A stretch of 64,000 nucleotides of DNA from Himantopus leucocephalus (Eukaryota > Chordata > Aves > Charadriiformes > Recurvirostridae), in contig RSEF01000020.1 of assembly GCA_003993805.1 (NCBI GenBank), positions 7,677,522-7,741,521 of the forward strand, in the 5' to 3' direction. How positions within the stretch are numbered: position 1 is the first letter of the stretch; every line of letters begins with the position of its first letter. A model generated the notes under the pieces. That model was not told where the DNA came from, made no database searches, and saw nothing but the letters and a program-made list of their open reading frames with translations. The position numbers were made by a program, and so were the translations under genes. This document shows positions 4,195 to 35,837 of this stretch, piece by piece.

Positions 4195-7100
4195 CTGTAT
4201 GATTAAAAGAAGCTTAATTACTAACGATCATAAAATATATTATATTTTACAATCAAGTAGAGCTATGGGCACATACATGTACACAAACTTCTTTTATAGT
4301 AAGCTCCTGTAAATACACTTGAAATGATGCAATTTCACATTCAAGTCTATAAAGCAAAGGTAACACACACTGTAACTTCAGGAAAAGAGAATGGTGACCA
4401 GCGCAAAACAACAGTATTTGTCATCAAGTTGTGGGGTTTTTGCTTCTTTGTTTCAAAAACTACCACCTGTTTTACAGTGGTTTCAAAAGGGAAAGAAGGT
4501 AGCTTTGATTTCATCTTTTTGCTTTCGAAAGCATACATATAATGCAGACACAGTAGTTCACAATTCACAGTAATTCCAAATTACTGCCCAAAACCCAGTA
4601 ACTTGGAGTTAAAAGAGGTAAAATTAATTTGGAATGAAATTAAAAAATGCGTACTGCTTATATATATGTTTTTGGGTTTTTCTTAAGGAAAATCTATTTG
4701 GAATTTTATTATCCTTAAGTGCGCTGCCATCTAGAAGGCCCTTTCAAGGAACTATTGCAATCTAGGGGCTATTATTAAGATTTTTAAAAAGCGACAGGAA
4801 AGCATTTTCTTGTCAGAAAAATTAAGCAATCCTTTTACCACAGAAAAAGGAAGAGAACAAAGAAGAAAAGTTCCGCTTCAATGTAGGACTTGGCAGTTTT
4901 ATTTGTCTCAAAAAAGAGAGCACAGACATAAACCACTGTACTTCAGGACAACCGTTCTGAATCCTGAACGTGAGCTTACCTGCGGTTGAGATTTTGGCAT
5001 GCCAGGTTTTTCAGATTTTGGTTTGATCTTCTCTTTAGGTTTTGGTTTTGCATCTTTGCCAGAACTTAAAAACTTCATGGTGGCTGCAGCATGTTTGAGA
5101 ATGCAGTCATTGCTGCAGTACACAGAATCGGGCTGAGCCAAATTAAAACAGCCAGGACCAATGCACTTTGATGCACCAGGAGCTTCAATTACCTACAGAT
5201 TGAAATGGAGTGAGTTCAAACTTCAAAGCGGAAACAACAGAAACATACCTCTGTAACATGAAGAAGTGCTTACATACCGTATGTGCAGACCACAGCTATG
5301 ACCGTTAGTGACCTGCACAACTGCCAGCGTGAAAACAACTTTCATTCATAATATAACAGAAACAACCCATACAAATGTAAGAATTTCACTCTTGTAACAC
5401 ACGATTTTCAGCACATGTTGTATGTTCAAGTGGTTGGTTTGCTAGCAGTGAACTAAGGGAGGCTGGTTTCCTAAATTTTCGGATCCTGTAAGGACACAAA
5501 TGCTTTTTTCTGATCCTCTACATCACGTGAGAAATCTCCTTAATAATGCAGAACTCGTTTCTCAAGAGCAAGGTTTCTAAAACACATTTTAGTTATGTAT
5601 CACCATCAGCAGCTGTCCTCAGCCATGCATATATGCAAGAGGAAGCACTCAGCTGTTCAGCTGTACAGGTAATTCTTGCTCTAGAGGCTTACTAATTATA
5701 ATTTTAGAAGTCTCCAACTTACATCACCATAATCATTCTCCTAGATAATTTTGCCATAGCCCAATACTTCTTACACATGGAGAAGTCTGCATATGCAGTC
5801 TGTATTTTCCTCTACTTCACATTTACTCTCCATTTATATCAGTTATATACTATGCACTTCCTCTTCAAATGTTAAGGTTTAGAAAATGGTACATTCCTTG
5901 AAAACATTAAGTCAAAGTCTAGAAATACTGGAAAGCTCTTTAGGCTCCAACATATCACCTGTAGGTATTACGCCTTTAGTCTCCCTCTTGTAGGTTACTC
6001 CTAGAAGTGTTATACAACTGACCTGATACTCAGAACTACTGTACCTCTAGACAGCCTATCAATAAACTGCAATTTTTAATTACCAAAACTTTTTTGAGGC
6101 ATATTTCTAGAAAACAAGTTATTTGCATAGCGTGGCTTATTTTTCCCCAAAGTCAGTAAGACAGCATCATCTGCTGCAGTCTGATAAAACCTGGGTTTGT
6201 GAAGTCTCCCATAAAAATTAAGTTTATTCTTTAGAATGCTTTTCCATGATGTACACACTTAACTGTGAAGTACATGAAAGAACTATCAATTCATGTTCTC
6301 TAAGAAGCACCTCAAACTTCAGACTGAGCTGTCATTTCTAATTAAGGGCATTTACTTAGATGATGACAAAGGTTTCAGTGTTGATGTCTCTACTAATACA
6401 ATGTCTAAGAGTTTTAATCGCAAAACAAAACTCTACAGCTATAGGTGCTTATGGACAGCAACAAAAGAGAGTCTTAAAAGTGCTTAGAATACTGGTGTAA
6501 GAGAACAGATAAACTGAACAATGAGACAGTTCAGTCACTGTAACACAGAGCAATTTCAGCACATCAACATAGGAAATAGCAGTGATCTTTTTGCCTAGAA
6601 TGGGCAGGGAATTCTGGAGCGAGAGAGTGGTGCTTGTTTATACAAGCCACAGAGGGATTTTAACTGAGGTATGAGGGACAGCAGGGGCTCAAACACGGAC
6701 AGACTTGACTGTTCAGCTCTCTCAAAACGTGGTAGTACCTGGCAAACACAAGTAGGGCAGTTCCATTCCATTTCCAAATGCCAAAAGAATACCTAAAGTA
6801 TAAGCAGTTCTTCCATAAAAGGTAATGAGTTACTGATAATTATGTTTCTCTTTCACTAGAGGAGAGATGCCTAACACGTTCAAGGAACTTGTTAGCGTGC
6901 TAATATCTAAGAGTAATTGGTGGTACTCAGAAGCAGAACTTAAAATTAATACCAACACTGTCAGTGAAATGCAGACCAATGCAAAAGAACTGGACTCTCA
7001 AAAACATTTTTGTGTAAAAAAGTACAAGTGTATTTGAAACTGTATTAGAAACAGTATTTTTCTCAAAAATGTTTTCAACACATTTATCTTAAAATAGTAA

Positions 7101-9714
7101 ATATTTATATATTAAGCTCAAACTGTTCTGCCCTATACATTAAGCTCACTATGCTGATACGGATAACTCTACTATTTAAATTGACTAGAAGTGGGGAGTG
7201 TTCCATAACTGTTTTGTAGAAAATGTACTACAACAGAAAGATTCCTCCAGAGAGATGCTTATACTCAAAATAGTAATACTTATTCTAGGGATGATTTCAA
7301 AGTTTAAAGATTAGGTGTGAGAGAACAAATTCATACAGAAAAAATATGAACAGCTTTACCATTCAAAGAGCAAATACACTAAACATGCTCTTTGAGGCAT
7401 AGTAAGAAGAACAGGAAAATAGTCAAGATCTTGGCATCACAACAGTAGCTTGGGCAGTACAAAGACAACCACTATAGCATAAAGTTTTTTAATTTGTGTA
7501 CAATTGAGCTGAAGCAGCTTCTTTGCCTGTATTTTGAATTGGGCATGGAACTTGCTATTACAAAATTTAAACTTCTATTTTATGCCAGAATTTGCAATAA
7601 TTAGAAATACAGGTTTTAATGTTAAAAAAGACAGTACAAAACAATTCTCTATGTACTAATAACTTGAAGAAACATCAGGACAAAAATCAGAACTTCAAAG
7701 ACTAGTTGGAAGTACACAGGAAGTACAACTGCAATTAACTCCAGCACAGACACTTGTCAATGTTAAGTAAAAAGTCTCACTATCATTAAAAACTCCCAGA
7801 ATTGTTTGATTTCAATGTTAGTATAAAGTCGTTCAGAATTCTGATATTTCTATTAAAAGAACACCTTATTATTTGACTTCCATAACAGTATTTAAACAGG
7901 GCAGAATAGCACAGAGCATGTAGCGTGGCATTTCCTTAGACCTACATAAAACTTTTAAATCCCCCACTTCAGAAAAACACTTAGTTTTAGTTCCTGTATT
8001 GATAGAACAATGGATAAACTTCTGCTAAACAGTAATATTTATCAGGCTGTTCAGCTTCATATTTAGCTTTAAAAAACCAAGTCAGATTTACAGCCGTACA
8101 AGTAAGCTACTGTCTCAATGTACTCAGTGAAATACAAAGAATAAGAAACAATTCAAATACTTACAGGTTGAAATATCTTTAGTTTCTTCTTCCCACTTGG
8201 ATTTGCAGCTTTTTCAATCCTGCCCTTGATTCCTTGGTCCTCAACAGATTTTTGTTCAATTGTTCCTATGCTTGTGAACTCTGTGCCATCCACATTTACT
8301 TGCCCCGCTTTAGCTTCCTGCTGGTCTATTTCTGAAACAGGCTCATCCTGTCCCTGTAGAATGGTGCAGTTTGGACAGATATAGTCCTCACCATTCCTTT
8401 CCAACAATCGCCCTCGAGCCTCAGAAATACCCACGCAGTCACCATGAAACCATTCCTCACATCTATCACAACAAATCATAAACCTGAAAAAAAAGCAACA
8501 AAGGAACAGTAAAACATTGTGAAATGAAAAGATGGTTAATGCTCAACAGATATTTCAAGCAGATCTTAACTATCCCGATAAAGTACCAGTATACTGTTCT
8601 GCCTCCCTGTTCATTTCTGTGTTCATTTGCTTATCCTCTCTTTTACGTATTTGTTATAAACTCCCTCCAAAACTTCAAACCAATCCAACAGCTCATTCAC
8701 ATATACTCAAAAAGTAAGCATTAGCATTTGGTTTACTTCTTCATCACAGAAAAATTCCAACTACTTGTGTTGCATTTGTAGTTGAAACCTTTGCCTACCT
8801 GTTGTTATGAGGCTGACGACAAATACAATACAGTGCATTCGGGTCATAAATCTCAGACTCGGGTTTGCTTTTGGGTAGTTCTTCAGGTTCTTCATCTGTG
8901 ATCCCTTTTGCGCCAAGGGCAGGCTTTACCTCCTTCTGAACCTGAAGATCTTCAGTGTCTTCCTCAGACACAACCACTTGGCTTGCAATCTCAGTGCTGT
9001 CTACAGTCTCAGGCTCTTGTTTGACAGACAACTCGGGCTCAACTTGCTTTTCAGACTGGACATCCCCTGTTTCTGTAGGATCTTGTTCTGAATTTCTTTT
9101 CCTCAGGCGGACCTGTATATCCTTCAATGTCAGCTGCACAGGTTTCTGTTCAACACGTTTCTTTCTCAGTCGATTCTGCAGCTCCTTTAGTGTCAACCCA
9201 TCACTATCACTATCAGAAGTATCATCTTCCTCTTCCTCCTCTTCCTCTTCCTCCTCCTCTTCCTCCTCTTCTTTTGTGCGTCTGCTTTTAGAACCTTTCT
9301 GATCCTTGCTACTCCTAGTACCAATCCTCCGAGTTGCAGGTTTTATATCTGGAGTGCTCTCAACACTATCTTCTGAAGCAGTTTCAGCATCTGTAGCTGG
9401 ACAGGATGCCGGTTCACTGGAATCTTCCAGAGCAGTAGGAACACTCCTCCTTCCCCTGCGTCTTACTGTTGTAAGAAATTCTTCCACTCTTTCCGTTCGC
9501 TTTGGTTGCCGTCCACTCCGCCTGAGGTTTAAGCTTTGTTGCTGCTGTTGTGGCTGTTGGTCACTAGAGTCCACATCAATATCTCCTGCACCTTCTCGCT
9601 TAGCAATCGTAGTCCTTCGAAACCCCCAGGTTTTCCTGAACTCTTTACTTGTAGGCTTGATAGTTTTTTGCTCCTCCTCATTGCTTTGCTCACCTTTATC
9701 ATCCAAAACTGATG
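3919..9714 (-). CDS. DIDO1: DIDO1 core N-terminal region with PHD finger (four coding exons)
   Basis: Death-inducer obliterator 1, a nuclear chromatin-binding and transcription-associated protein. Exons 9714-8799, 8483-8165, 5192-4980 and 4194-3969 join in phase (2, 1, 0, 0) with GT/AG borders. The product follows human DIDO1 closely: the block IKPTSKEFRKTWGFRRTTIA, the basic stretch RRSGRQPKRTER (likely nuclear localisation), an acidic run and DTSDSDSDGLTLKELQNRLR. Next comes a PHD finger starting CICRQPHNNRFMICCDRC and ending YICPNC, with the Cys4-His-Cys3 zinc ligands visible. After it come QPDSVYCSNDCILKHAAA and STPSWASDHNYNAVKPE. The TFIIS-like and SPOC regions of the long isoforms are not in the window and must lie left of position 1. 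Human DIDO1 is annotated to start at the residue aligning with Leu of VLDDKG here, so the true start must be further upstream. Identity is recognised from memory of the human protein. Confidence 0.95.
4980..5192 (-). CDS. DIDO1: DIDO1 exon following the PHD-finger exon
   Basis: Acceptor CTGTAG before 5192, donor CAG|GTAAGC after 4980; 213 nt, phase 0 at both ends. It encodes VIEAPGASKCIGPGC, QPDSVYCSNDCILKHAAATM and a Lys/Pro-rich tail ending KSQPQ. The Cys-rich segment is well conserved with human DIDO1. Confidence 0.93.
5193..8164 (-). other. DIDO1: DIDO1 intron
   Basis: Intron of about 3 kb between the PHD-finger exon and the next one, bounded by GTAAGT at 8164 and CTGTAG at 5193. AT-rich; no further exon, RNA gene or repeat family recognised. 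Confidence 0.85.
8165..8483 (-). CDS. DIDO1: DIDO1 exon: second half of the PHD finger
   Basis: Acceptor TTTTTTTTCAG before 8483, donor CCT|GTAAGT after 8165; 319 nt. It begins by completing an Arg codon, then FMICCDRCEEWFHGDCVGIS and YICPNC, the His and the last Cys ligands of the PHD zinc finger. It ends in GRIEKAANPSGKKKLKIFQP. The PHD finger binds histone H3 tails in the mammalian protein. Confidence 0.95.
8799..9714 (-). CDS. DIDO1: DIDO1 large exon: basic, acidic and SUMO-like stretches, first half of PHD
   Basis: Acceptor TGTTTTTAG before 9714, donor AACAG|GTAGGC after 8799; 916 nt. It encodes ASVLDDKGEQSNEEE, the conserved TSKEFRKTWGFRR, a QQPQQQQQ run, RRSGRQPKRTER, a run of about 16 Glu, the repeat-like pairs LTLKELQNRLRKKR / LTLKDIQVRLRKR, VKQEPE, and ends in YDPNALYCICRQPHNNR. 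The Met that starts human DIDO1 is a Leu codon (TTG) here. Confidence 0.95.
9220..9272 (-). repeat. GAG/GAA trinucleotide run encoding poly-Glu in DIDO1
   Basis: An almost pure run of cct/ctt triplets on the plus strand reads as about 16 consecutive Glu codons. The mammalian protein is much less acidic at this point, so the run is a likely site of length polymorphism. Confidence 0.85.
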
Positions 9715-10024: not shown

Positions 10025-10135
10025 CAGGAGAACTATTTTCCATGTTGTCAGTATTAGATTCAGATTCTAATGGCACTGGCTGTGAACTTACAGCTTGTTC
10101 CATAGTACGGACACCACAGTCCCCACCCTGAAACG
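10025..10135 (-). CDS. DIDO1: Upstream DIDO1 exon containing alternative start MEQAVSSQ
   Basis: Acceptor CTCTTCAG before 10135, donor CCTG|GTAAGA after 10025; 111 nt. It joins in phase to 9714 (G|CA = Ala). It contains an in-frame ATG at 10103 with the context ACTATGG; starting there would add 26 residues before the DIDO1 exon. The frame is also open upstream of this ATG and in phase with the exon at 12344. This is the best supported of the upstream exons. Confidence 0.8.
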
Positions 10136-13100
10136 CTGAAGAGAAACATAAGGTTCAAAACTCAGATTCAAAAATATTCATAGCCAAAGTAATTATTAAA
10201 TATTCTGATGTAATCTCAATATGTTATTGTAACAAATACTTAATTTGAATTTCAAGCCACTAATAGTCACTGCATACCAACAAAAAGTTCAGTGAATTCC
10301 TTCAAAGACAGAGTACTAAATTAAGTGTATGTGTTTGGACACTATACTGACGTATCTTATGAAATAGTCTTAGGTTTTCTGATTATTTTTCAAGAAAAAT
10401 CCTTCCCTAGGGTTTGTCTGGGGAAAAACCTCTAGCAGTTCCACTCCTTACATGCACACAGAAGCCATGCATGCACGAGTGTGAGACATCACGGAGCAAA
10501 ACAAGGTGTGATCCAAACAGGCAGTACAGAGACAGTTACTGTTTTAAAGGGGAGGGTGGTATTCGATATCACTAACATTTCCTGGTAGAAAGGACTGCTG
10601 ATTACCTGCAGCAGGATAAGAAACAAGGTAGAAACAAGAGCCAGTTTAAAGAAATTCAAAGCTACCGCTGTTTAGATAATACAGGGTTAGTCAATGAATA
10701 ATGAAGTTTTGGATTTTAAACAAATGTAAAGCCAGAGAAGTATCCCAGTCTCCCTTATTAAAATAAACTAGGTCTTTATCTTGTCTATTAAACAGTTTAG
10801 CTTCTATTTTTAAGTAGTTTCAGAAACACTGGTGGGTATTCAGGATAAAGTAACATGCTTTCCCTTTGTTACGTCTCTAACAAGGTTTACTGGATAGAAG
10901 AAATTATACAGAAAAGAACAAAATAAAAGTCTTCTCAAACATCTCTCTATGTTTGAGGAAAAAAAAAAAACAATCTGCATTCGATGAAACGAGAAAGACT
11001 GCTCCTTGACATGGTTATTTACAAAAAGATTTTCAGCCTGTATGATCTACAACAATTACCAAAAAACCCCCACAAACTAGCAAAGAACCTCCAACTACCA
11101 TGGATGGAGCCATAGGAAAAAAAGAAAGAAAGAAAGAAAAAAAAAAAACTGTGCTGACAACCAGGAACCCCTTTTTCTCAAAAAGTAATTTCCAGCATAC
11201 TAGGAGACTCTCTTATTTGAGAAGACAGAAGCAAATAACAGAAATAAGAAAAAAATCTGCGACTGCATTTTGAGCAATTCAGGAATAACCTGGTTTGAAC
11301 AAGTATTAAAGTTGGTATTACATCATGGTGCAATGTTTTAAATGAGTTGCACGCCACGTAAATGCTCTCCTAAGTGAATGCAGAAATTATGTTTTGCAGT
11401 CATTGCAACTACATTGCTCATATGAAACTGTAATATGCAGCAGTAAGTATATTTCAATGAATTGGGTAAACAGAAGCAGTGTTTTAAGAACAACAACAAG
11501 AAACTCAACTCTCCCACAAAAATGTTTCTGGAGTAGTTATATGTGAATTCCTGGCTCAAGAATTGTACAGGTAAGCCAAAAGTGAACATTAACAGAATTC
11601 CTAAATAACGGTACATGCTGAAAGAATCAAAAGATGTTTCTAACAGCTGTAAATATTACAGCTACAAGTTTTCATAGGCACCCTTCAGTAAGCTTTTCCC
11701 AGTCTTGCAGTGTACACTGGTGATAAACACCTCCTTATTTCATATAGTGCATCAGTTGCATTACTGTTCTGCCTTATCAAACACGATTGCTCTATAGAGC
11801 AACTCCTCTGCTTTCTTATATTACATTTACCAATGTTAAAACAGAAATGCAACTGTCAATGCTATGGGAACAAACATCCATGCAGATATGTTAAAAAATT
11901 AACACTGAAGCTGTAACTTAAAGAGTCATTTCCCTGAGATACTATAAATGTACCAGTAAAAGCACCAGACTCCAGAATATCAATTTAAATAGTAACGGAT
12001 TTAACATTACAGCCAGATTAAAAAGTGAATTTTAAGCCTGTACTACCCAGGTAAAAAGCCAAAATGGCTTTAATTCAATATGAAATTCCATTAAGTTCCC
12101 CCACAAAAAAATCACTAACCAAAACTTTTTAAAAAAAAATTTTAAAAACAACATCAAAATTATATTCACACCAGAAAAAGGCTGCAATAGAAGGGAAGAA
12201 ATCAAAACAAATTTTACATCTTTGTTTACCTTGGAAGATGAAGTTAAAAGCTACAGGCAGAGGTAATCCAAATTCTGAGATTTAAATTCCAGAAAAAACG
12301 GAAAGAAATAAGAAGTCTCGTCAATGTCCTCTATATGCTTTACCTGACACAGCATTAGAGGTTCGGAAGGTTTCTCCCTGTAGAGCTGAACGAAAAGGAG
12401 AGCCAGAAGAGGGCAGCAAAGGATCAGAGTCATTCAGCATTATCCTTCCAGCACATACTGAATTTCCTGATTCAGAAGCGCCAGACTGAGTCTCAGAGTT
12501 GTCAGCAGGACCAAATACTATCAATCCTCCTTTTCCTGCTGGCTCCTGGAGAGGGAGGGGAAAAAAAAGAAGACAAAATAAGGCACTGATATATTTATGA
12601 ACTTGTCTTACTATTGTTTACATAAATTTGGAATTGTTTTGCCTCTATTACATTATAAAGCAAATTCTGTTATTTTGCCTTTTTGACAGGTTTCTGCTTT
12701 AGAAAGACACTGAAACTGGAAAGAAAAGTCATAGTAAAACTATGCCACCTCCACCGCTTACCAACAGGTGAGACCTTTGAAATAAATACAAAAAAATGGT
12801 TGTACTCTTATCAATTCATTTATATCCCATGAAGACTTCCAAGAACAGTGACAAACTGTAATCAACAAGTCTATTCCACTTTCAGTATTTAAAAGCATTC
12901 TTAGAGTGAAATTTAACAATCGCATATTGTACAATGAAAACACAGAAATACTTTTAAAATCCATCAGCATGCCCAAGTTTATAGTAGGGAATTACCAGTT
13001 TGTACAACTAAATTTCATCACAGAAGACATCTGCTGCTTTGAGGATTTAAATCCAAGTGGCTACTCAGTGGTTTGGCAAGGTACGATAATAAAAATTTAT

Positions 13101-16100
13101 AGCTGAGCTCCAGAATTAAGGAATATTCCTCATCACTGTCCCTTTCACTAATAATGTTTGCAATACAGAAAATTTCAGAAGCTTTCTTTCAAGGACAGCA
13201 GATTATATCAGTAACACCACCTTTTCCCAAAAATTAACCTTTGGAAAATATTTCAAAATCACAAGGCATTCATTTAAAGTATCTGAAAAACTGGGGTCCC
13301 AATTCACATGCAGAACAGCAATGGAACATCAACACTGACTGCTTGCTTCTGAACTCACCTAAGCTTGAAAATCGGTATGAAATGCCTGCATGTAACCCAA
13401 AGCAGCCTACCAAACTAGAAGAACACTGGAAAAGAATTTCAGAGGAAAAGGAGGACCAGACAGACAGGACAGAAAAACTCACTTTTGAACAGACCTATAA
13501 AATAAGTCAGTGAAGACAAAAGAACAGTCCTGGACAGGGACTCTGTGTGTCAGCGTTCTGCAATCAAAGATGCAGGGGAACTGCCATAGTAGGTGTAGAA
13601 AACAACTAAAACACTTAATTCTTTCAAAGGAGCAAAAACTGATTGTTAACACACCAGGCGGGGACACATACACATTTAAGAACAGATTACATAATCCTTC
13701 ATCGACATGGCAATACAAAGTCTGACTTTTCTTTTCAAAGAATACGTTATTCTTTTGAAATCTCTCAAGCCCCCAACTCTTAAAAGCACCTTTGCTACTT
13801 AGAAACATATTTTATTTCCTAAGCAACTATCATCTCTACGTGTTCTCCAATGCTATGTTACTGTCCCAAAAATAAGGAGATGGGATAAGACAAACCCCTC
13901 CCCAAATCTAATTCTCATCAGTGCATCACATTATTACTTCATAAGCAATAAATCTCAAAGTTTGCATGCCTGTGGCAAAGCAGAACTAGGGGAAAAATAA
14001 AAAGAGTGTATAGCTAGATCCATATCAGTATCTCCTGCCCCTCTAGTTTCTCTATAGGGGATTACATACATTATTTACATTTTTTCCTTCGCCCAACTAT
14101 TCCCGCTCAAAAAAGAAGAGAAAAAATATAAACAAAAAAAAGACAATAGAATAAACTAATTTTAAAGACCCTAGTGCTATATATCATGATATTGAATACC
14201 TGCTCTAATATGTATTTTGCTCCATTGTCTGAATAAGTGATTATATCCAGGGAGTCAGTCACTGATGGCTGAAGACAGTCTGAGTTTAAAGTGCCGTCTT
14301 CCACGCTGTTGTTCTTTAATAACCTTTCAATCTCCCTGTTCAGAATCTCCAACTGATCACACATCATGCAATTTTTAAGTGATATGCCTAAAGGAAGAGG
14401 GAAAGTCAGCTAATCACGTCTTGTTCAACTCTAATATTAAACTATGAAAACAAACTATGCCTCTAGAACATGCAAAAAGTGCAACCTATTTGAATAATTT
14501 ATCCAGTAACACACTAAAGACAGAACTGTCTAAAGAACTGTCTTCCCAGTGCACAATTTTGTATCTGTGTGTTTAAGGCCCTGTGTGCAACATGCTCTTC
14601 ACAATTACGTTTGAGCCACAGAGCTGATATCAAAAATGGAACTGGCATGCTCCCTTCTTAGGAGACATTCTGGCTCACTGAACCTAACACACTGTACACT
14701 GCTAGTCATACCCCACCCAGTGGCAAGGCTGTACAGTGCAGAGTCTACAGCTCTGATTTAACATAAAATAGCATTTTTAACACAAAAAATAATTGAGAAC
14801 TAAGAGATCCTAGGCAAGAATAATGCCTCTTTTTGCATTAGTAGATGTTATCTCATTATTATTACCTCTGTTACCTACAGGAAAAAACTTCAACAGAACT
14901 GCAATTTTAAAATAATTTCGAGAGGTATAAAAAGTACACTTAAAAGACTAAAATTGCAGACCCCCTACATTTGCTATAAAATGCTTGGGGGTTTACTATT
15001 ATTATTATTATTATTTAGTATCTCCATTTTTTTTCTCTCCCCATTTGGTCCAAATTATTTTTCATGAAAAACAGAGTAAGTTGCAAACTTATTTCACATG
15101 AATCTGCTTTTGCAGAACTGCATCCTAATGCAGGTTAAACTTAAATGCCTAAAAGCTGCTGAAAAATCAAAGATTATCAAAACATAAATGCACAAAATTT
15201 TAATTCACAATTACACTTTTAAATGTAGCAAGCCTGTTGGCACTTCTAAGCAAACATTCTGCCAACTGCCTGCAAAATATTTACTACAACATAAGGGAAC
15301 TTTGTAGTCTTCAAATGTCTGTTTCTCTTCCCAATTCAGTATGATCGGTTGTTCATATTGTTCTCCTTGTTCTCAAGTTAGCTACTCAATTGCAGCTGAG
15401 ATACTGACAGAAATGCAAGCTGAAGCAGCAATCTGGTTATCTTGTTTAAAAGGAACTGAACATCCGTGATCAATTAATCTCATTCGTCCTAATACAGCAC
15501 ATTAATCACATCTCTGAAACTGAACGTTCTAGCTGGAAACAGAAAACTATTGTACTTCCCCTAACAGACAATTCCCATCAGCATCATCCTGCCTTTCTGC
15601 CACATTTCCTTTAGAAAGGATATTATGTACCTTGGAAAAATTTGAGGCAAGAGTCTCCATAAATGATGGGACAGAAAGAAAAAATAATGTTCATAATAAA
15701 CAAATATACTGTTGCTTATTCATAAAGTCCTCTGGTTTTGCACAGGTTAACAACTTCTGTGATCAGCAATCTCCACTGTGAAAATGTGTAAGCTTTTAAG
15801 ATTGACTATAAATAAAGGCAGAAACACACATCAAGAGTTTCTTAAAGGAAAAAATCTTTCCCCCTTCACAGATGCAGTAAGCTTTGCCAATACAAGCCCT
15901 AGGTTGATTTAAATGGGCATACAACATACACAGCAGGTCCTCATTAACAAAGGATTCACAGTGCTTATTAAAATCCATGTTTATGGACTACAAAGAACAG
16001 AGTACAACACGCACTACTTGGGCTGCTACTTGCTCCCTTCTCCTGTCCTGTTACATGGGCTACGCCACACCTACCCACATACCTCTGCCACAGAAATAAT

Positions 16101-19100
16101 CACCCGATTCCTTAGTAAACACTCAATTTCTGAATCCAGCAGAAAAAGAACCCACCAAAGAGTGATCCAAAAGGATTTAAAAAAAGAACATCAGAACTAG
16201 TGTAAAGACATGCAAGTACAGGGATGGAGAACAAGACTCCTTAAGGCAGGCTGAGCTGGTGTCGCACCTTGCTGCTATCTCGTTCAACACGTGCACACCA
16301 CCATCCACTCAGCGAGCGCTCATCAGATCTCAGCCAGCAGGACTTCATTAACTGCCCCCTCAGCCAAGACTCTGTCTTAAGCTTAAAAACTGTAACTACA
16401 TGGGCATTCCAGTGAAACAGAACAGTCACTTATGTAAAAGTGGAGCATAAAGCTGATGCATAGTATCTTGAGAAAGAATATTCAGCCAAGAAAACATTTA
16501 TTCAGGTTTTCTGTCCCCCATTAGGTTGCAGGTAAAATATTCGCATTTCCCCCAAACAAGTTAGGCATTTGAATTCATCCTGGACCTAAATTCCAGAATC
16601 AGTTGAAGCACAAGAGTATCCTACCCTAGAAAAATCACAAAACTGTCACAAGCTTTTAGTTTCAATTTGGTCAACTATTCTCAAGCAGTGACAAACCCCA
16701 AAACATGGGGCTGCCCGCTCTGTAAGACTACAGAAGCCATCACACACATTCAGCATCCCTGTGGATTCTCTAAATATTGCAAACCTGTGTGTTTTTCAGT
16801 ATACATGGCTTGAAGAAATTCCAGAGTAGTATCAGCAGCCAATCTAATAAGAGAGAAAAGATATTCTCAAATTCTGAGTCCTGCTGCTACTGCAATACCA
16901 CTTGTTCACAAACGTGCAATACACATTAAAAATCCATCCTCCAACACACCTTTATTAACCAATTAAAAAAAAAAAAAAGAGGGAAAGCTTGTAATCTCAC
17001 TCTGCTTTTCTGTAAATATATTATTGCTCTCACGTTCAGATAAAACCTCAAGAAAAGCGTACTGCTATCTACTGCCATCTTTGTAACCCACCAGTTTATA
17101 AGTCTCAGGGAAAAAGTAAGGGAGAGAGATGATGTGTGCCAGTGTCACAGGGCTGAGAGGTGTTAACTGCAGGAAAGGCAACTTGAAGACACCTGGATCT
17201 GCTGATGCCGACTTCCTTAAGCCCTTTTTAAGATGCCTCAACATAACATCTTAATCTGATGATAACAGATGAAAGCTTTTAAAGAACACCAACATTTCTC
17301 CATCTTTTTGTGTTTATATTTTTAGACAAAGGCCAATTCAACAAACTGCCAACAAATATACATTCAGATCAGTATCTCCACTTTTTTTTTCCCCCCTCTC
17401 ATTCCCCTGAAGAGGTAATAAAACGTTCAGTGGGTCCACTGACTGCATAAAGATTTTGTCTTTTCTAGAACTTGCAATTTTAAATGCGTTAAGAATTCCC
17501 TGCCTCAGTTAACTGGGAAGACTTCATTCTAAAAAAGGATCTCAAAAGACAGCTTAGTAATAAAACCTTTAACGTGAACTAAAAGCAACCAAAAGAACTA
17601 ACAATTTCTCCTTTATCAGAGGACTTGTGTACCACAAAAAAACCACCTAAAAAACTATGTCAGAATTCAGGGTAAATTCTTCAGTTTCAGCTTACTAGCT
17701 ATTTTATTTAAGTTTTTTGAGGAATCTGTATGAAAGATCAGTCATCTTTATCCTCTCATTAATGTTAATCCTCATTGTCAACAGCTAGATGACAAAAGAT
17801 GCCACACCTTATTCCATGTTCTTGGATGACAGCGCTCTTCAACACTCAGCCAATTTGCTGCTATCTGCACAAATTCTGGTATCTCGTTATTTACAAGTTA
17901 TACAAGCACCTTGCATCAATACTTTAGTCCAAATGATTGATGTCTGGCATCTATTAGTTCTCTTATTCCCTACTCACCCTAAGAACTCTACAGAAGGATG
18001 TCTTCTATTTTGAAAGATCTCAGGCATACTCACCCCTACACAAGCACCCAAGAAAGCAAGGTTCACCTCATATTTAAGACTTGTGATAGACCCTAGTACC
18101 CGCAGGAGTTGTTTCAGTGTGACCTGTTACCTAACAAATGTTTACTTCTATTGTGACAAAGAAACAAAGGCACCTTTTATTAAAAAAAAAAAAAAGTAGT
18201 CTTCATACTGAAGCTCCAGTTAATGTTGTAGATACGTTATGGAAATTCAATGGCCAGGGCCCAAGGACAGCACAGAAATCTCAACCAACCACAACAGCCA
18301 ATAAAAGGTTCAGCAACTTTCTGAAAACTAGGGTTAGCAACACGACTGCATCTGCAAAGAAATTCAAAGCATAAGAGTCTTATACCTTCTAGCTTTTAAA
18401 AGAAGGCATCGTTCATCAGTGACCAGTTTCATCTCCATGTCCTGACACAAATCCAGACTTTGCCAGTATTTTAAGACACTAGTTGCAATTAGAGTAACTT
18501 GTAATTGCGCTTTAGTTATATTCTACTGTGAGTTTATTCAGAATTAGAAGGCTTGACATGCAAGGTATTTGGCTTGAACCAAAATAACCAGGATTGGTTT
18601 CTTAACTGTCAAAGAAACTGCAAGATGTTACCAACAGGACAGAAAGCATCTTTTCCAGAATGATGTAACAGTGATACCAATCACAGTTGATGCTGTTTGC
18701 TCATTTTGTTCTCTGTAAAAGAGGCAGTAGGCTTGGCCTATGCCTCCTTTAAGTGTTAAAAAATTCCTAGTAAGAAAATACATTAATATCACATGAGAAA
18801 AAAAATATGTCTGAGAACTCATATAAGGACACAATTTCTGATGCAAATGAAAGAAATATTGGTATGGCTTAGTTGATGCCACTCCCACTCAGAAGACCGA
18901 TCCCATTGAAAATTACTTTGCACCCCTATTTCCCTATTTGTCAAAGATGACATCTGGGAAACTGGCACTCTTTCTGCTAAGCAGGAGCAAAATTAATCCC
19001 TTGCATCAACAAGCATTAGAAAAGCAGCCCAAAAGAAGTCAGTAGGGCAAAACCTATTTTGTACATAAATGAGCTGTTCCATTCAGACCACGGACAAAAG

Positions 19101-21395
19101 GTACAATCCACCGACCCCTAACAACAGCAGGGAACGGATTCTGCACTAGCACTGCAGAAAGCCACCTACACACAGGGCTGCAGTGCAGTCCCCTCCATCT
19201 GCTGCTCGTCCACGAAAGGTGCAAGAGCAGACTACTTCCATGAGAAGCAACAGAAAATCAGATGACCAAGTACAACTAGTATATATGGTCTTTTATTTTC
19301 ATATAAAACTCACCCACTGCTTACTGATTTAAGTTTCTTCCTTCTGGAAGAAGGACAACACCTTTCAAAAAGTCATGAAATGGGAATGTTGTGACAGAAG
19401 CAATGAGAGTTGAAGAGAGAGAGCAGCTATCATAAGGCTCAAGTCTGGATATGGGGAAACAAGAAAACTGATGTGATTCTGAACTCCCTCCCCCACCTCC
19501 CAAATAATCTACTATCTCACTACTTGGCATTATAGACAAGCTGCAGTTCAAGGTCAAAGTCCAGACATCCCTGGTAAATACAAAGATTTTATGCCAGGAA
19601 GAAGTTTACATTTGAAAGATCATCTTAAAATAAAACTTGCATAAAATTGAAGTATTTCACTGCTTATAGTTAGACCTAGCAGAATAAAACCAAACAGAAA
19701 TAGTGCTACAAAAAACATAATGCTTATCTGTAAATGCTTTGCTGGCTATTAAACATAGTAAAGTAATTCCAAGATTATAAACAAACCTACCACCTCATAT
19801 ACCCAGAATACTAACAAAAGTGGCAGTTAATTCCTTCCTATTCCCATTTAAAAAATTAACACATTAACAAGCTTTGAAATTTGCACAGTGTAGATTCAGT
19901 AAAGCGTATTCATTACTACAGCCATGTTCCTCAGAATTACCCCATCTTAATTTAAGAAATGTGTAATCTTCTTAAATACTTCATGAAGCAATAAGAATTA
20001 CAGGCAAATATAAGCAGTGCTATATAGCCAAATTAGGACAAAGTATCACCAAGATACAGTTTTAAGGTAGCTTTTAGTATCACAACAGTATTTCAACCCC
20101 AGATGCACATAAACCAGCGTATTATTAATTTGTCAGGGATGGCACCACTGACACCTACAACAGTCTCACATCACACCCTTCCACTCAGACCTGCTGCTTC
20201 TTCCCTCACTTCCCCATCTCCCTTTACAAAGACAGGTTCTAGGGCTCGTAAAGCCTCATTTTTCAGCGTTGGGCAGTACCCCATCTCAGTTCCTACCAAC
20301 AGTAATGGAAAAGAACTGACTTGACTAGCATGGGAGACCAGGCTGCCCCAGGACAGAAATGGCTGCACAGGAGGACAGAGAACCTGCACCCTTTGAAGGT
20401 GGTGGAAACAAAGTGTGTGATGGCACCCATACCACAATGCAAGGGAAAAGCTCCCCAGGGACACCTCAGCACACCAGTGTGACCAGCTCTCCCACAGGCA
20501 GGGGGGGGAAGAAAAAAAAAGGAAAAAAATTAATTAATTTGGAGGCTTCTGCATCTCTGTTAAAACCCCCTTACTCAACCTTGCTGACATTTTATCACAG
20601 AATCATTGAAGGCACTGTAAGACCTTGCGGTGTCATGATTTGGTATCACGAATAATTCAGCAGCGTCTGTCACTACCACATTTTTACCATCAGACGCCTG
20701 GAAAAACAGAAAAATTATTTAAATGAAGTTTTGTGGTTTGCAGACTTTCTCACTTTGAATGCAGGGTTGTTTGGGTTTTTTTTATGCTGAAAAAATTATT
20801 ATTACAGGAGAGCCCATGAAGCACACATTCACATCATACTAAATACTAACAAGATACAGTGCTGATGCCAATGACCTAATGAGATGTAAAATGTAAACAT
20901 TAACTACCTTTCTTTTAATTTCCAAAAATGCAGAAACAAGCGTGCAAGTTTCTTCCAGATTTTTCTCACAGGACAAATGAGACTCAATACATTTATAAAT
21001 TTCACAAGATCACTTTTTTCCACTTGAGAAAGGTATTGAAGAGATATTCTAGACTGACAATAAACTTTATAGCAAACTAACTTGACAGCTTGATTTTTGA
21101 AATAATTAAGCAAATGCATTCCTTCCAAGAAGTAAAAGAAATAGCTTCCTTTAAAAACAATAAATACATTCACTTGGTCTCTGTGCTTGTAATAATGAGC
21201 CTTTACAAATTAAAATGTCTTTAGTCACCCATGATTATAAACCCTCTCTACTGTATGTCTGAAACTACTACATACACCATCATCCTCGCCGTGATTTCTG
21301 TCAGGTGACTCACTTACCTTATGTAAGCCTCCCAAGAAGGCCACTGCCTCCCGTGATGGGTAACTGCGCACACACAGGACAGCAATCCTGCACAT
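10025..21395 (-). CDS. DIDO1: Predicted in-frame N-terminal extension of DIDO1 (seven exons, about 268 aa)
   Basis: Seven exons, 21416-21318, 20697-20624, 18478-18386, 16843-16785, 14387-14200, 12545-12344 and 10135-10025, have AG/GT borders. Their phases (0, 2, 2, 1, 0, 1, 1) fit one open frame running straight into the DIDO1 exon at 9714. The likely start is the ATG at 21395 (MCRIAVLC). Later in-frame Mets are at 14367 (MMCDQLEIL) and 10103 (MEQAVSSQ). The first half contains REAVAFLGGLHK, VVVTDAAELFVIP, then charged helical stretches (QDMEMKLVTDERCLLLKARR; DQLEILNREIERLLKNN) that look coiled-coil-like. The second half (12545-10025) is rich in Ser, Gly, Asn and Glu and probably disordered. 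I do not recognise a domain. About 800 nt open across seven splice joins is unlikely by chance. It could instead be a separate upstream gene fused by splicing, or some exons could be alternative. Confidence 0.6.
10136..12343 (-). other. DIDO1: DIDO1 intron
   Basis: About 2.2 kb between two predicted upstream exons. It holds an A-rich GAAA microsatellite near 11117-11151; otherwise AT-rich with nothing recognised. Confidence 0.65.
11117..11151. repeat. GAAA microsatellite in an A-rich tract
   Basis: Several perfect GAAA units embedded in poly-A, inside a DIDO1 intron. Confidence 0.85.
12344..12545 (-). CDS. DIDO1: Predicted upstream DIDO1 exon (Ser/Gly-rich)
   Basis: Acceptor CCCTCTCCAG before 12545, donor GTCAG|GTAAAG after 12344; 202 nt, open from the first base (EPAGKGGLIVFGPADNSE) to NAVS. 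Phase 0 in, phase 1 out, matching both neighbours. Low-complexity Ser/Gly/Asn content; no domain recognised. Confidence 0.68.
14200..14387 (-). CDS. DIDO1: Predicted upstream DIDO1 exon (charged helix)
   Basis: Acceptor TTCCTTTAG before 14387, donor GAGCAG|GTATTC after 14200; 188 nt. It encodes ISLKNCMMCDQLEILNREIE, then a less ordered stretch ending GAKYILEQ. The tandem Met codons at 14367 could serve as an internal start. The heptad-like spacing of Leu/Ile suggests a short coiled coil. Confidence 0.65.
14996..15015. repeat. ATT trinucleotide microsatellite
   Basis: Six to seven consecutive ATT units in a DIDO1 intron. Confidence 0.9.
16785..16843 (-). CDS. DIDO1: Predicted upstream DIDO1 exon (59 nt)
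   Basis: Acceptor CTTATTAG before 16843, donor ACACAG|GTTTGC after 16785. It encodes LAADTTLEFLQAMYTEKHT and joins in phase on both sides (AG|A = Arg upstream, G|GC = Gly downstream). Confidence 0.6.
18386..18478 (-). CDS. DIDO1: Predicted upstream DIDO1 exon (93 nt)
   Basis: Acceptor GCAACTAG before 18478, donor AGAAG|GTATAA after 18386. It encodes VLKYWQSLDLCQDMEMKLV then TDERCLLLKAR. Thirty whole codons plus split codons fit both neighbours. Confidence 0.6.
20624..20697 (-). CDS. DIDO1: Predicted upstream DIDO1 exon (74 nt, weak donor)
   Basis: A strong acceptor (TCTGTTTTTCCAG) precedes 20697. The exon encodes ASDGKNVVVTDAAELFVIPN. The donor AAG|GTCTTA after 20624 is weak beyond the AG|GT core, but it is the one that gives the required phase. 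Without an exon of length 2 mod 3 here, the flanking exons would not join in frame. Confidence 0.45.
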
Positions 21396-21416
21396 TTGCA
21401 GTGAATGCGGGACCTC
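21318..21416 (-). CDS. DIDO1: Predicted first coding exon of extended DIDO1
   Basis: A perfect donor AAG|GTAAGTGAG follows 21318. There is an acceptor AACACTTCCAG before 21416 (an alternative AG at 21388 would remove the ATG). The in-frame ATG at 21395, with A at -3, starts MCRIAVLCVRSYPSRE and runs to FLGGLHK. If the exon is spliced to the CpG-island exon ending at 26163, the frame upstream carries a stop, which favours this ATG as the start. Confidence 0.55.
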
Positions 21417-24400
21417 CTGGAAGTGTTGGATTTAATGCATATGCACAGAATCACAGTACCATGCACACAGAGCAGACTCTCGTCTACAGTAGCAGTTAGA
21501 CGGAAAAGACACTGAGCGACTCCACAGTATGACATTAACTACTCCAAGCAAAAACGCATGAAGTAGCTCCCTGGTTCACGTAAAGCAAAACACACATGCT
21601 GAAGTTTATTTTGATGTCTCTTTCAGACTAGAAAATCAACTCCCCAAGCAAAACATTTTCTAAAAAAATCTTATTTCAGATTGCATCAGGTAGGATCAGA
21701 ACAGCCAGAAAAAAAAATCAATTAAAGGAAAGAAGGGATGGACCACTCAGTAGGTAGTGCAGCAGAATGAGAACAGCACCAGGGATTACAACAGTATTTT
21801 ATTCTGGATAAGTAGCAAGAAGCGCTTCTTTGAACCAGAGTGAAGTTCCCACAGCTAAATTCAGCTAAATAGCGATTTCTCATAGAAACATTCAAGGCAC
21901 TTTAGCAGCAGGCCCACAAGAAATCTGGCAAACATGAGAAGTTAATAACATAAGACTATGATCATATCTACACTACAGATGTTCACTGTCACAATTGCAC
22001 AAGTCAGGAACGTTAAGGGGTACAACCCCTAATCAACAGAGCCGTGCTAGCATAAGCACCTCCTATTGGTGTAATTACACCTGCAAAACTGTACTTTTAC
22101 CTGTACGAGCTGTTCTGTTTGCAGGGTGGGGTAGCAGGTGCTCACCACCCTGGTGCGGCAGTGTTATCAGTGTGGCTGCACACATAATAAGAAAGCTCTA
22201 TCAGCACACAAGTACAGGCCCTTCCAAGTAGGGAAGCAGCTTATCTCAGGAGGAAGCAAGACTTTGAAAGTTCCCTCAAATTCCTTGAATGAAAAAAGTT
22301 ACGTTAGCAAACAGATTCTAAGATGTTTGTGTACACATTAGAGCTTTTGCCAGCACAGCTCTGTCTGTTAGTAGCTGGGGAAAGAACTGCTACTGACAGC
22401 TGTACTGATGGAACTTTAGTAAAGCACAAACATTAACATAAGGCACTTACAGTATGCACATCCTCCAACCTGTAGGCCCATAATTGTGTTTGATAAACAA
22501 AATTCATATTCAGTTTAGTGTTTCTGCATTTGAGGAAACAGTAACTAATTTTAAGAGGAAAGACAAGTATTATACACATGCCATTAGTATTTTCTAGTCC
22601 CGAGCTTCCTGGGTGCTTAAAACACTAGGCAGATACACTCTATTGGCTTACTAACAGACTGACACTTTGCTTTTTTACTACTCCTGTAACACCTTCTGAA
22701 GTTTTTATTCCCATTCTTCTGAGCAAGCTAATCCCATATCTGCCCTAAAAATGAAAATTTACCCAAAGACAACAAAACAAAATTTAATTTTTTGGTCAGG
22801 TTTACTTCTGCTCTCAGGGTCTGAACAGTGTGAGCAAAAATGAGAGCAAACAGATGTTGCTCATTAAGAAAAGTTGTGAGCAGAATCACAAGTAGTGTAG
22901 GTAACTGCTTTTTTCTTTTTCCCTTTTCTACAGATATAGGGAAAAAAAAAGCAGCTTTCTGTGGTCAAAAGCTTAAATTAAAAAACCAAACATAGCCATC
23001 TCTGTATAAGAAACATTCTAAAGGCCCCAGTACAAGCCAATTTTACAAGCCATGGTCCTAAGTTTAGGCAACAGAAATATCAATTACAAACTTTGATTGT
23101 TATTGGGTATTATTCAATATACAATATCTTTATCTGAATGAAGATACTTTACAAATACATATTATTTATTTGCCTAATGTGCAATTTCTGCTACTGAACT
23201 TGACCTCTTTAGCAGCACTAAAAATGTATTTTCAGCAACTGCACAGGAAACAATGCGCTTTGGAAAGGCAATTCACAATCAGGCATTCCTCCTCTGAAGT
23301 ACCAAAGAAATCAGTTCTTTACCATGGCTGTTACCTGAACAGCAACAATTTTTAAGGCTAAGTCTGAGAACCTTACAGTTTAACTGTCCCAAATTCCACA
23401 GCTAGTGTATTTTTAAACATACACGATTAGAATTCTACAACTGTCAAATTTCAGCTTGAATATTTACACTGTACTTGAAACTCCCTCTTCACAGACAGCT
23501 TTACACAAACTAATAAAGCTGTGGGGGCTTTCTGTCAAGTTGGCATAATTACAGTACATACACTGGTTCACATCCCAAAACACTGTATGAAACTATCTGT
23601 ATCTAGGTATTGTTGTCAGTAGAACTGACAGAAATGGACTCAAAACAACTGCAGGGTTATAATTTCTGAACTTATCAGCACAGCTGTTGAAGAAAAACAA
23701 TCCTGTGTTTTTACACGTTTTTCCATCATTTCATTTGTAAAACTGAGCTAAAAATACAACGTCTGAAACAAGTTATAATTTTCATTCTTATTGCATCGAA
23801 AAGGCTTCATTAAATGAAGTAAAACAGAAATTAATTTCTCCTTCAGAATTTAGTGAAATACAGTGATTACAGCATACTGATTATATTATTAAAAATGCAG
23901 TAAACACAGTCCAGTACTCAATTTTGATTAAGGCTTGCCATGAGAACACATATAATACACATTTAATCTTTGTGTCTTAGCTCCCTAACTGGAAATTTAA
24001 GATTTTTCCTAACTTTAAAGTCTATCAATGCTCTTGAGACTACCATCATTAATAACTGTGAAGTATTCATTTATTTCAGATGCTGTATTAGAGAAAAACT
24101 TAACAGTAGTACAACCGTCAAAGCGTGAACTGACAGTTGACTGAAGATTCTCCTAGTGAGGAGAGAGGCTTGACAGAACACAAAAAAGCAACCAGTTCTT
24201 GTGTAAACTAGATAAATCTTACTTATATTAAAATCCTCTCCTTAAATCTCCTACTACTTGTAGCACTACAAGACACTAGGCAGAAAGAGTGCAGCAGTGA
24301 ACAAAAGTAGTGCAGACAGACACTACCACTTCTGTCAACTAAGAACCATCTAATCTTACTCTTGCTGAGTACAGTCCCTTCTTCTTCCATTTTATCAGTT

Positions 24401-26162
24401 AAATCTTATAAATTCTCAGACTAACCCCTATAATCCTTGCCCTTCCTCTCTACACTTAATATTTCTAGCCAAAACTTCAGACTGTAGAGAATTAAATCCC
24501 ACAGTTGTAAATTACAACTATGAAGACAATTACTATCTTAAATCAGAAAGAAGTAACATAATCTAATGCCAGAAAATCTTAGTAGTGAAGCAGGATTAAG
24601 TAGAACAAACACTGCCTTTTGATGAGTCCACTAGACACTGAAAAATATTTATTCAATTTTATTTATTATTTTGGACTCATACTATTCTATTAGCATTGCT
24701 TTTGGGACTTTCAGAATTTGGGGTTTTTTTTAAACTCAAAAGACATCTCTCAGTTGTATGAAAAGCACCCTCTGAAGCACTGTGAATTATATGTATTATT
24801 TTATATTTGAACAGTTTTAAAATCCAAGTATTTCGTAGTGTACATAAATTTGCAGCAGAGCAAAAACTTCATTTGCACACCTACAGAAATCAACTAAAAC
24901 ATCCCTTAAAAACCCCCAAACCACAGAAACATTGTAAAAAAAAATTATGTAAATGCTAGTCTTGAAATCAACAATTATTCAATTTGCAAATCATTGGAAT
25001 CATGTGGTCTCAAAGTAGGATGAAGGCTAACATGAGCTTTTATTCTTCCAAAGTGCATGAGAAAAACCTTTATGGGCAAAACGTTTCTGGAACCATCAAG
25101 GGGAAAAAAAAAAATTTAAGGCCTAACTGTACAGCTATTTTGAGCTTACTTCTATATTTATTCCTATAGAAAGTTCCAAATGTCAAAGAACGATAACAAG
25201 CAGCTGGCATACATAAAACTGGAGCAGAACCCAAAATATCTATTACAATTAACACAGTACATGTATGCTACACTTGTACAGTAACTACATTTTTTTTCCC
25301 ATTGACCAGCACTTAAATGGCTTAAAAAGCTAGTAATTTTTGTTTGTTGAAGCTAAACCAATTCAAATTACCACTTACAAGAAAACTGTGTAAAACAGAA
25401 AGACAAAAAAGCAAGCAGTGAAAAAGTTCTCATAAAATAAAGCAAAATATAGTTGAATATCAGCCACCAAGGAATTTACTTAAGCAAGACTGTTATTATT
25501 ATGCATTCAAAAGAGCTATTTCTGAAAAAAAAAAAAAATCCCAATCAAAACAAACAAACAAAAAAAACCCCACGAAAACCCCCAAACCCCAAAAGCATAG
25601 GGAATGTATAAATGCTTATACATCCTTTTGAGTTTAAATAAAAGGAATCAGCTTTTCTTGTCTCCCTGAAGTTCCTAGGAAGAAAACGTGAAAGCCCATG
25701 CAAGAAAAACATCCCATTACACTATTTTGAGTTACTGAAGGTACAAACAGAAGGGAAAGTGTAACACACATACACTTTTTAACACGTTGAAAAGATTGTG
25801 ATGTTCTTTCCAATTTAAAAATGACAAGATAAAACGGTAAGATTTTCTTAACTCACTACTAAAACATAACTATCACTTGGAGGTATAAACTGAAAACTAC
25901 TTAACTGTATGAAAATAAATTTGGTCACCAAAGAATAGTTTTGTGCAAGCCAAATAAGCAGCTCCAAACTACCACCACCTCCAAGAGACAGTGTTTAAGT
26001 ACACTAGGGCAAGGGGTGGGGAATAGTTATTGACAGGGAATGTCATGAATATTTAAAGCCAGCCAACAATTACTACCGTCTAAAAATTCAACCCCTCCTC
26101 TTTTCCCCCACAAGAAAGTCACCAGAACTTGATACAAGTTCGACTTTTCTTGTGTCACTCAC
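21417..26162 (-). other. DIDO1: Large 5' intron of DIDO1
   Basis: AT-rich region between the first predicted coding exon and the CpG island. No convincing exon. The minus strand near 24385 reads MEEEGTVLSK followed by A|GTAAGA, but its phase does not fit the exon at 21416. An A/C-rich low-complexity tract is at 25527-25600. Confidence 0.6.
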
Positions 26163-26429
26163 CGATAAGGAGATCGCCTCCCTCGCCCAGAAAAAACAAA
26201 CGTCGCCTCAAGGCAGGTAACTTCCACTCCCACCCTCCGAAGACACCCCCCGGCCCCCGCAACGAGTTTTCGGGCGGGTTTCTGCCGTCCCCCGCGGCGA
26301 GGAGCACCGCGGAGGGGGCACCCGGGCTGCCCCGGCACGCCGCCACCCGTCGGGGCCGCGGCGGAGAACCCCTCGTCCGGTACCGGGGCAACGGTGAAAC
26401 TCAACGAGAAAGGCGGTTAAAGTCGGTGG

Positions 26430-26437
26430 TGACGTCA
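26430..26437. promoter_or_regulatory. CRE palindrome TGACGTCA
   Basis: Perfect 8-bp CREB/ATF site inside the CpG island. A second TGACGT lies 35 bp away at 26465. Confidence 0.7.
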
Positions 26438-26464
26438 CGGAGAAGCTTGCCGGCGTCAGCTTGA

Positions 26465-26470
26465 TGACGT
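26465..26470 (+). promoter_or_regulatory. CRE half site TGACGT
   Basis: TGACGTCG, seven of eight bases of the CRE palindrome, close to the perfect site at 26430. Confidence 0.5.
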
Positions 26471-26948: not shown

Positions 26949-27065
26949 CGCGGGGAGGGGTGGGGGGATCTCGCCGCCGCCGCGGGTCTCAGCCGAGCCG
27001 AGCCGCCATTTCCTCCTCGCAACCGCTCCGGAGCGCTGGGCGGGGGCGCTCCTCCCCCGCTACCA
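26949..27065 (-). other. DIDO1: Candidate non-coding first exon of DIDO1 (distal)
   Basis: Minus-strand donor CGCG|GTGAGTGA at 26949/26948. The exon would contain AAATGGCGGC followed six codons later by a stop, so it is probably 5' UTR with a very short upstream frame. The 5' boundary is a guess. Confidence 0.4.
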
Positions 27066-27556
27066 TAGAAACCGACATGGCGGCCAACGGCTGCCTAGAG
27101 CGCCGCGCGTTGCGCACGGCTCGCGGAGGACTTCGGTTGGCGTTGGCTCCGCCTCCCGGCCGGGCGGCGCGCGCTGCCTCACAGCATGGCGCTGGGCGGG
27201 AAAGGCGCGGCGGCCCCTCAGCCCTGCCCGCAGCCGGGGCCTCGTCGCCCTCCAGCTCCAGGGCGGGCTGAGCCCTTCCGCACACAGCCGCTGCTCGCAG
27301 AGTCCCCGTCCTGTCGGCTCTAGGCCGCCGTACGCCGCCGGTGGAGGGAAAGGGGAGGCGGGCGGCGCCGGTCACCTCAGGGCTTCCTCTGCAGGCGAGT
27401 TCTGTGGGATCAACAACGCCCGCTCCCGCCTTTCTTATCAAAAATACGGGGTGATCCTACCTCACAGGAACTGCGGTTTTATTCATTATTCGTGAGGTTG
27501 CAAGCGCCAAAGCAAAACTGCACAGTAGCAGTGCTAAATACTGTTTTGCTTACAGT

Positions 27557-27864: not shown

Positions 27865-27865
27865 N

Positions 27866-33121: not shown

Positions 33122-35837
<2,716 letters not shown>

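What the first reader, a model, noticed from the sequence alone, without database searches (positions are those of the whole stretch)
10025..21416. Seven in-phase exons predict an unrecognised ~268-residue N-terminal extension of DIDO1
Every exon from 21416 to 10025 has AG/GT borders, and the phases chain into the known DIDO1 exon at 9714 with no stop over about 800 nt. Human DIDO1 is annotated to begin near VLDDKG, so this would be a new N-terminal module: a folded-looking first half (REAVAFLGGLHK, VVVTDAAELFVIP, charged helices) and a disordered second half. It may be ancestral and lost or overlooked in mammals, bird-specific, or a separate gene fused by splicing.
Basis: partly seen in the sequence, partly recalled or inferred. 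Interest (0 to 1): 0.75.

Follow-up and report, generated by a model that had tools for sequence, protein, structure and literature searches.

The report
Longer DIDO1 front end in birds
Three of the seven proposed exons look like genuine coding exons that lengthen the front end of the bird DIDO1 protein, much of it already in database predictions, while the other four have no support as coding exons.

Summary
The window is bird DNA with DIDO1 on the minus strand. The seven AG/GT exons and the stop-free chain exist as described, but only the last three hold up as coding: 14387-14200, 12545-12344 and 10135-10025. Their splice sites outscore every upstream candidate, and database DIDO1 proteins contain them. 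Of 21 listed bird records, 13 begin at the MLND Met (ATG 12440, 72 residues before the human start). Frog, marsupial, gar and two sauropsid records begin at the ATG-10103 Met (29 residues). Alligator and ten squamate records begin in exon 14387 (163 residues). None of the 21 bird records includes that exon, yet here it is intact and matches alligator at 36 of 55 residues, so it is probably an unannotated bird cassette exon. Splicing the presumed CpG-island first exon to each of the three makes exactly these ATGs the first in-frame starts. The four upstream exons found no relative, and random sequence also gives millions of such chains. At the human start all 68 listed placental or placental-like records have Met while this bird has TTG, so the short placental N-terminus looks derived. 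A weak resemblance to PHF3 is suggestive only.

The parts
26949..27100 (-). Probable non-coding DIDO1 first exon in a CpG island, ending at donor GCG|GTGAGT. It carries a short upstream ORF (MAARLG, stop TGA). The 5' end is not determined.
   Evidence: Sequence. Joined in silico to exons 14387, 12545 and 10135, the DIDO1 frame meets a stop 15, 38 and 15 codons upstream with no in-frame ATG between (which took 27200 as an arbitrary 5' end). Inferred, no RNA evidence.
14200..14387 (-). Start ATG 14367 or 14364: MMCDQLEILNREIERLLKNN... Not in any of the 21 bird records listed.
   Evidence: Splice score above all 2806 upstream candidates, narrowly. 36/55 identity to alligator and 29-34 of 55-56 to ten squamates. 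Alligator and ten squamate records start here.
12344..12545 (-). ATG 12440 starts MLNDSDPLLPSSGSPF, the N-terminus of 13 of 21 listed bird records.
   Evidence: Splice score above all candidates. 18 of 52 listed non-placental records start at the residue aligned with this Met.
10025..10135 (-). ATG 10103 starts MEQAVSSQ; a further ATG at 10043.
   Evidence: Splice score above all candidates. 8 of 52 listed non-placental records, including four frogs, gar and a marsupial, start at the residue aligned with this Met.
8799..9714 (-). Known first coding exon of mammalian DIDO1. The codon at the human start position is TTG (9706-9704).
   Evidence: The human record begins MDDKGDPSNEE.
8165..8483 (-). 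Next DIDO1 exon, PHD finger
   Evidence: Pfam PHD E=1.2e-11 on a typed piece spanning the end of the previous exon and this one.
4980..5192 (-). DIDO1 exon following the PHD exon
   Evidence: reading frame continues.
21318..21416 (-).
   Evidence: No relative found. Strong donor 12.0, modest acceptor 4.8, rank 5.
20624..20697 (-). Strong acceptor, poor donor. May be a non-coding 5' exon.
   Evidence: Acceptor 13.1, donor -0.7, rank 48; with the donor at 20580 rank 23. No relative found.
18386..18478 (-).
   Evidence: Acceptor -1.2, donor 3.2, rank 695 of 2806. No relative found.
16785..16843 (-).
   Evidence: Rank 19. No relative found.

Best explanation
The three exons nearest the known DIDO1 coding exon (14387-14200, 12545-12344, 10135-10025) are ordinary DIDO1 coding exons of non-placental vertebrates. 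A non-coding CpG-island exon is spliced to one of them, skipping zero, one or two, so translation begins at the first in-frame ATG of whichever exon comes first. That gives three nested N-termini, 163, 72 or 29 residues longer than human DIDO1. The extension is probably mostly disordered, with one short helix near its start, and probably serves as a regulatory or docking tail in front of the PHD finger. Placental mammals have an ATG where this bird has TTG, and their annotated protein starts there. Shown here: exon borders, frame, homology of the peptide to annotated records, and the match between in-silico splicing and annotated starts. Inferred: actual use of exon 14387-14200 in birds, the alternative splicing itself, the identity of the first exon, and the disorder and function of the tail. 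The four upstream exons are not part of the protein.
For: Splice scores of the three exons exceed all 2806 upstream candidates. The database search found 146 proteins and listed 120. By the names I count 52 as non-placental; of these 11 begin in exon 14387 (1 alligator, 10 squamates), 18 at the MLND Met and 8 at the ATG-10103 Met. Identity of exon 14387 to alligator is 36/55. In-silico joining of the CpG exon to each of the three exons puts a stop upstream and makes exactly those three ATGs first in frame. A Podarcis record passes from an Arg/Gly/Pro-rich leader directly into the exon-10135 homologue, and a Pseudonaja record passes from other sequence into the exon-12545 homologue. The residue at the human start is Met in 71 of 120 records (68 placental or unnamed placental-like, and 3 bird UniRef records that start exactly there) and not Met in the other 49 (its 8 unparsed records and two misplaced ones were read by eye).
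Against: No RNA data were available. None of the 21 listed bird records contains exon 14387-14200, none turned up in the longer-protein search, and its donor is the weakest of the accepted exons (4.7), so birds may use it rarely or never. Only one bird genome could be read. Codon usage did not separate true from doubtful exons: 14387 sits at the 81st percentile while reader exons 1 and 2 sit at the 93rd and 97th, with a training set containing 6 stops. The presumed first exon also holds other ATGs (sequence), so leaky scanning or reinitiation would be needed. Many records are computer predictions, so agreement between them is not independent proof.
Confidence: 0.8

Rival explanations
1. One reading: all seven exons encode a ~268-residue DIDO1 extension with a folded first half.
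For: Borders and frame exist. Exon 1 has a perfect donor and exon 2 a strong acceptor. Exons 1 and 2 score high on a rough codon measure. The real strand holds more in-phase chains than any of six controls.
Against: No relative for the exon 1-4 peptides among proteins of about 1202-3822 residues. Exon 3 splice sites are poor (rank 695) and exon 2's donor is weak. Such chains number in the millions in random sequence too. The peptides have no Pfam match.
Confidence: 0.05
2. Some of the four upstream segments, most likely 21416-21318 and 20697-20580, are real but non-coding 5' UTR exons of DIDO1.
For: Good individual splice signals. They lie between the CpG island and the coding exons. The long form of exon 2 runs into an in-frame TGA.
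Against: No RNA evidence. Other candidates in the same stretch score as well.
Confidence: 0.2
3. Birds have lost use of exon 14387-14200 and translate only from the ATG at 12440 or 10103; the intact frame here is a relic.
For: None of 21 listed bird records contains it. Weak donor.
Against: The frame is open, both splice sites remain, and 36 of 55 residues match alligator, which is hard to retain without selection since the bird-crocodile split (recalled, about 240 million years).
Confidence: 0.25
4. A separate small gene upstream of DIDO1 fused to it by splicing.
Against: The three supported exons occur as DIDO1 N-termini in annotated records. Short stand-alone proteins were not searched, so this rival is not fully tested.
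Confidence: 0.02

Closest known systems
DIDO1 predicted proteins of birds, such as Strix uralensis (P0002) and Gallus (P0010)
   Same: Same exons 12545-12344 (from its Met) and 10135-10025; 95% and 88% identical to the window over the matched part.
   Different: They begin at MLND and lack exon 14387-14200.
DIDO1 of Alligator sinensis (isoform X4, P0003) and squamates (P0020, P0021, P0023 and others)
   Same: Include the homologue of exon 14387-14200 and start in it.
   Different: 69% (alligator) and 53-57% (the ten squamates) identical over the matched part. The first half of exon 12545 is poorly conserved (10/35 with alligator).
Human DIDO1 (P0093)
   Same: The same protein from KPTSKEFRKTWGF onward.
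   Different: Starts at MDDKG, with Met where this bird has TTG. The record has no upstream residues.
PHF3, paralogue of DIDO (PMC10689479, passages seen)
   Same: PHF3 has MLSDKDPMLGSASxQF ahead of an ST(I/L)AKR segment, as bird DIDO1 has MLNDSDPLLPSSGSPF ahead of TTIAKR. A local profile alignment picks this stretch (P 0.0069).
   Different: The same alignment has an HHalign probability of only 5.5%, and the global one fails. Shuffle tests are not significant for alligator or two squamates (867, 789 and 525 of 1000) and borderline for two birds (55 and 29 of 1000). Homology is unproven.

Membership tests
DIDO1 | Orthologous N-terminal sequence KPTSKEFRKTWGFRRTTIAKRE | tested here: met
DIDO1 | PHD finger | tested here: met
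   Pfam PF00628 E=1.2e-11
DIDO1 | TFIIS-like central domain and SPOC domain | not tested
   Not sought in the window; the gene appears to run off its low end. Most listed homologous records carry PF07500 and PF07744.
DIDO1 long sauropsid N-terminus | Exon with M(M)CD.LEILNREIERLL joined in frame to the MLND exon | tested here: met
   sequence present, in phase, 36/55 identical to alligator. Splicing in RNA not testable here.
DIDO1 extension from exons 21416-16785 | Related peptide in any annotated DIDO1 protein | tested here: not met
   one protein passed, alligator, which begins at exon 14387.
PHF3 N-terminal region | Significant sequence similarity of the DIDO1 extension to the PHF3 N-terminus | tested here: inconclusive

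The most novel reading that the evidence does not exclude
Birds still splice and translate an unannotated DIDO1 exon (14387-14200) kept since before the bird-crocodile split. The whole extension, including the PHF3-like MLxDxDPxL stretch, is the ancestral DIDO/PHF3 N-terminus. Placental mammals lost it from DIDO1 when a new ATG arose in the next exon, while PHF3 kept it.
Probability: 0.25. Interest if true: 0.5.

Novelty: new member of a known kind. Interest (0 to 1): 0.3.

Why it matters
DIDO isoforms link chromatin and RNA polymerase II, and the work seen here used human and mouse cells. If the placental N-terminus is a derived truncation, constructs and knock-outs in mammals miss a tail that other vertebrates have. 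Bird gene models may also need an extra first coding exon. The effect on annotation is modest but easily tested.

Tried and rejected
Pfam gave no match for the spliced N-terminal peptides. PDB sequences gave only weak matches to the 222-residue peptide, best E 0.57. Codon usage was too noisy to separate true from doubtful exons. A single-sequence AlphaFold model of the exon-14387 peptide gave mean pLDDT 59, with a helix at residues 10-26 of 62 and two short strands at 49-60 in low-confidence sequence; it neither shows nor excludes a fold. A global profile alignment to PHF3 failed, and the local one found the motif at probability 5.5%. No direct or inverted repeats of 40 or more bases were reported at 14000-27000. 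Paper searches listed none on an avian or extended DIDO1 N-terminus; the listings were partial for (15 of 2354; 10 of 11), and only titles and starts of abstracts were seen. PMC10689479 was seen as passages.

An alternative reading of exon 2, a start ATG at 20590 giving MSASVLKYW..., was considered. It needs exons 3 and 4, and no relative was found.

Full report
What is there. Spliced to the exon at 9714 they give one open frame. DIDO1 lies on the minus strand. Its known first coding exon is 9714-8799 and the PHD exon is 8483-8165. The 26-28 kb stretch has 62% G+C and a strong donor after 26949; I take it as the promoter and non-coding first exon. On the other side lies what I name GID8 (recalled neighbour) on the plus strand: CTLH domains at 34430-34741 and 35136-35414. 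That the DNA is from a bird is inferred from the best matches, an owl record at 95% identity first.

Is the chain more than chance? Not by itself. Five Markov-random sequences gave 1.1 to 3.8 million and the antisense strand 3.1 million; with strict thresholds all give zero. The real strand is richer than the controls, but a chain is found everywhere. Splice strength does separate the exons. Those at 14387, 12545 and 10135 beat all 2806 candidate exons in 26000-14450 (best candidate 18.9) with sums of 19.1, 25.3 and 20.0, while the upstream four score 16.7, 12.4, 2.1 and 14.2, ranks 5, 48, 695 and 19. The position weights were recalled, so the ranks are approximate. Codon usage did not help.

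Database evidence. A search with the spliced peptide found 146 proteins and listed 120. By the listed names I assign 52 to non-placental vertebrates: 21 birds, 1 alligator, 4 turtles, 19 squamates, 1 marsupial, 4 frogs, 1 coelacanth and 1 gar. The other 68 I assign to placental mammals, four of them unnamed records placed there by similarity. Each record stands for a cluster at 90% identity, and members were not seen. Aligned to the window peptide, 11 of the 52 start in exon 14387 (alligator and ten squamates), 18 at the MLND Met in exon 12545 (13 birds, 2 turtles, 3 squamates) and 8 at the Met of ATG 10103 in exon 10135 (1 bird, 1 turtle, 1 marsupial, 4 frogs, gar). The ostrich record starts about 27 residues above MLND, within exon 12545. 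None of the 21 bird records includes exon 14387. A second search, over proteins of about 1202-3822 residues with the peptides of exons 1-4 and exon 14387, returned only alligator, whose record begins at exon 14387; the squamate records did not reach its E-value limit there, so it is a strict test. I found no support for exons 1-4, and no listed bird protein with exon 14387.

Exon 14387-14200 in this bird. The frame is intact and 36 of 55 residues match alligator; ten squamates match at 29-34 of 55-56. The first half of exon 12545 matches only 10 of 35 with alligator, so conservation is concentrated in exon 14387 and around MLND. Its donor (4.7) is the weakest of the accepted exons, as expected of a cassette exon that is often skipped.

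How it probably works. Joining the presumed CpG exon in silico to exon 14387, 12545 or 10135 gives a stop 15, 38 or 15 codons upstream and no in-frame ATG between. The first in-frame ATGs are then 14367, 12440 and 10103, which are the three starts that annotated records use. A Podarcis record passes from an Arg/Gly/Pro-rich leader into the exon-10135 homologue and a Pseudonaja record enters at the exon-12545 homologue, which fits skipping. This makes nested N-termini 163, 72 or 29 residues longer than the human protein. The splicing is inferred, because no RNA was available. The tail is probably disordered with a short helix near its start; the single-sequence model has low confidence. In human cells N-terminal truncation of DIDO costs chromatin interactions, the kinases CK2 and CDK11B bind the N-terminus, and three transcription starts lie upstream of exon 3, which the passages imply holds the human start codon (PMC10689479, passages). 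A regulatory or docking role for the extra tail is my inference.

Mammals. At the human start position this bird has TTG (9706-9704). Of 120 records, 71 have Met there: the 68 placental or placental-like ones and three bird UniRef records that begin exactly at that residue. The other 49, all non-placental, have another residue (8 records its pattern did not parse and two it misplaced were read by eye). The three bird exceptions (Bubo, Junco twice) may be models projected from human with a non-ATG start written as Met; Melospiza, a sparrow like Junco, has Leu. The annotated placental start therefore looks derived.

PHF3. The bird extension contains MLNDSDPLLPSSGSPF and PHF3 contains MLSDKDPMLGSASxQF, each ahead of a T(I/L)AKR segment. 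I noticed this from memory and then retrieved PHF3 records. A local profile alignment selects this stretch with P 0.0069 but probability 5.5%, and the global one fails (13 of the 18 chosen PHF3 rows and 21 DIDO1 rows given; 5 bird PHF3 rows dropped because they read STLAKR rather than STIAKR). Shuffle tests gave 55 of 1000 for the window, 29 for a tinamou, 867 for alligator, 789 and 525 for two squamates. This is a lead, not a result.

Verdict.

Noticed in passing
window 34430-35414 (+): Probably GID8: CTLH domain in two exons, beside DIDO1 and on the other strand. A G+C-rich stretch that may be its promoter is at about 31.4-32.5 kb, several kb from DIDO1's.
   Followed up: partly
window 50594-55099 (+): Short plus-strand open frames reading like transporter segments, possibly SLC17A9 (recalled order of neighbours). 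Pfam gave no match to three of them.
   Followed up: partly
window 27560-27900 and around 42509: Near-identical sequence repeated on both sides of single N bases, which looks like an assembly join that kept both overlapping ends.
   Followed up: no
window about 58090-58330 and 41693-41994: Open frames with simple repeating residues (CQLCQLCQP; SAKDGGAPAQPGQGRTIR), suggesting minisatellites.
   Followed up: no
P0048 (Podarcis record) residues 1-150: A database DIDO1 protein whose first 150 residues look like translated 5' UTR, probably an annotation error.
   Followed up: partly
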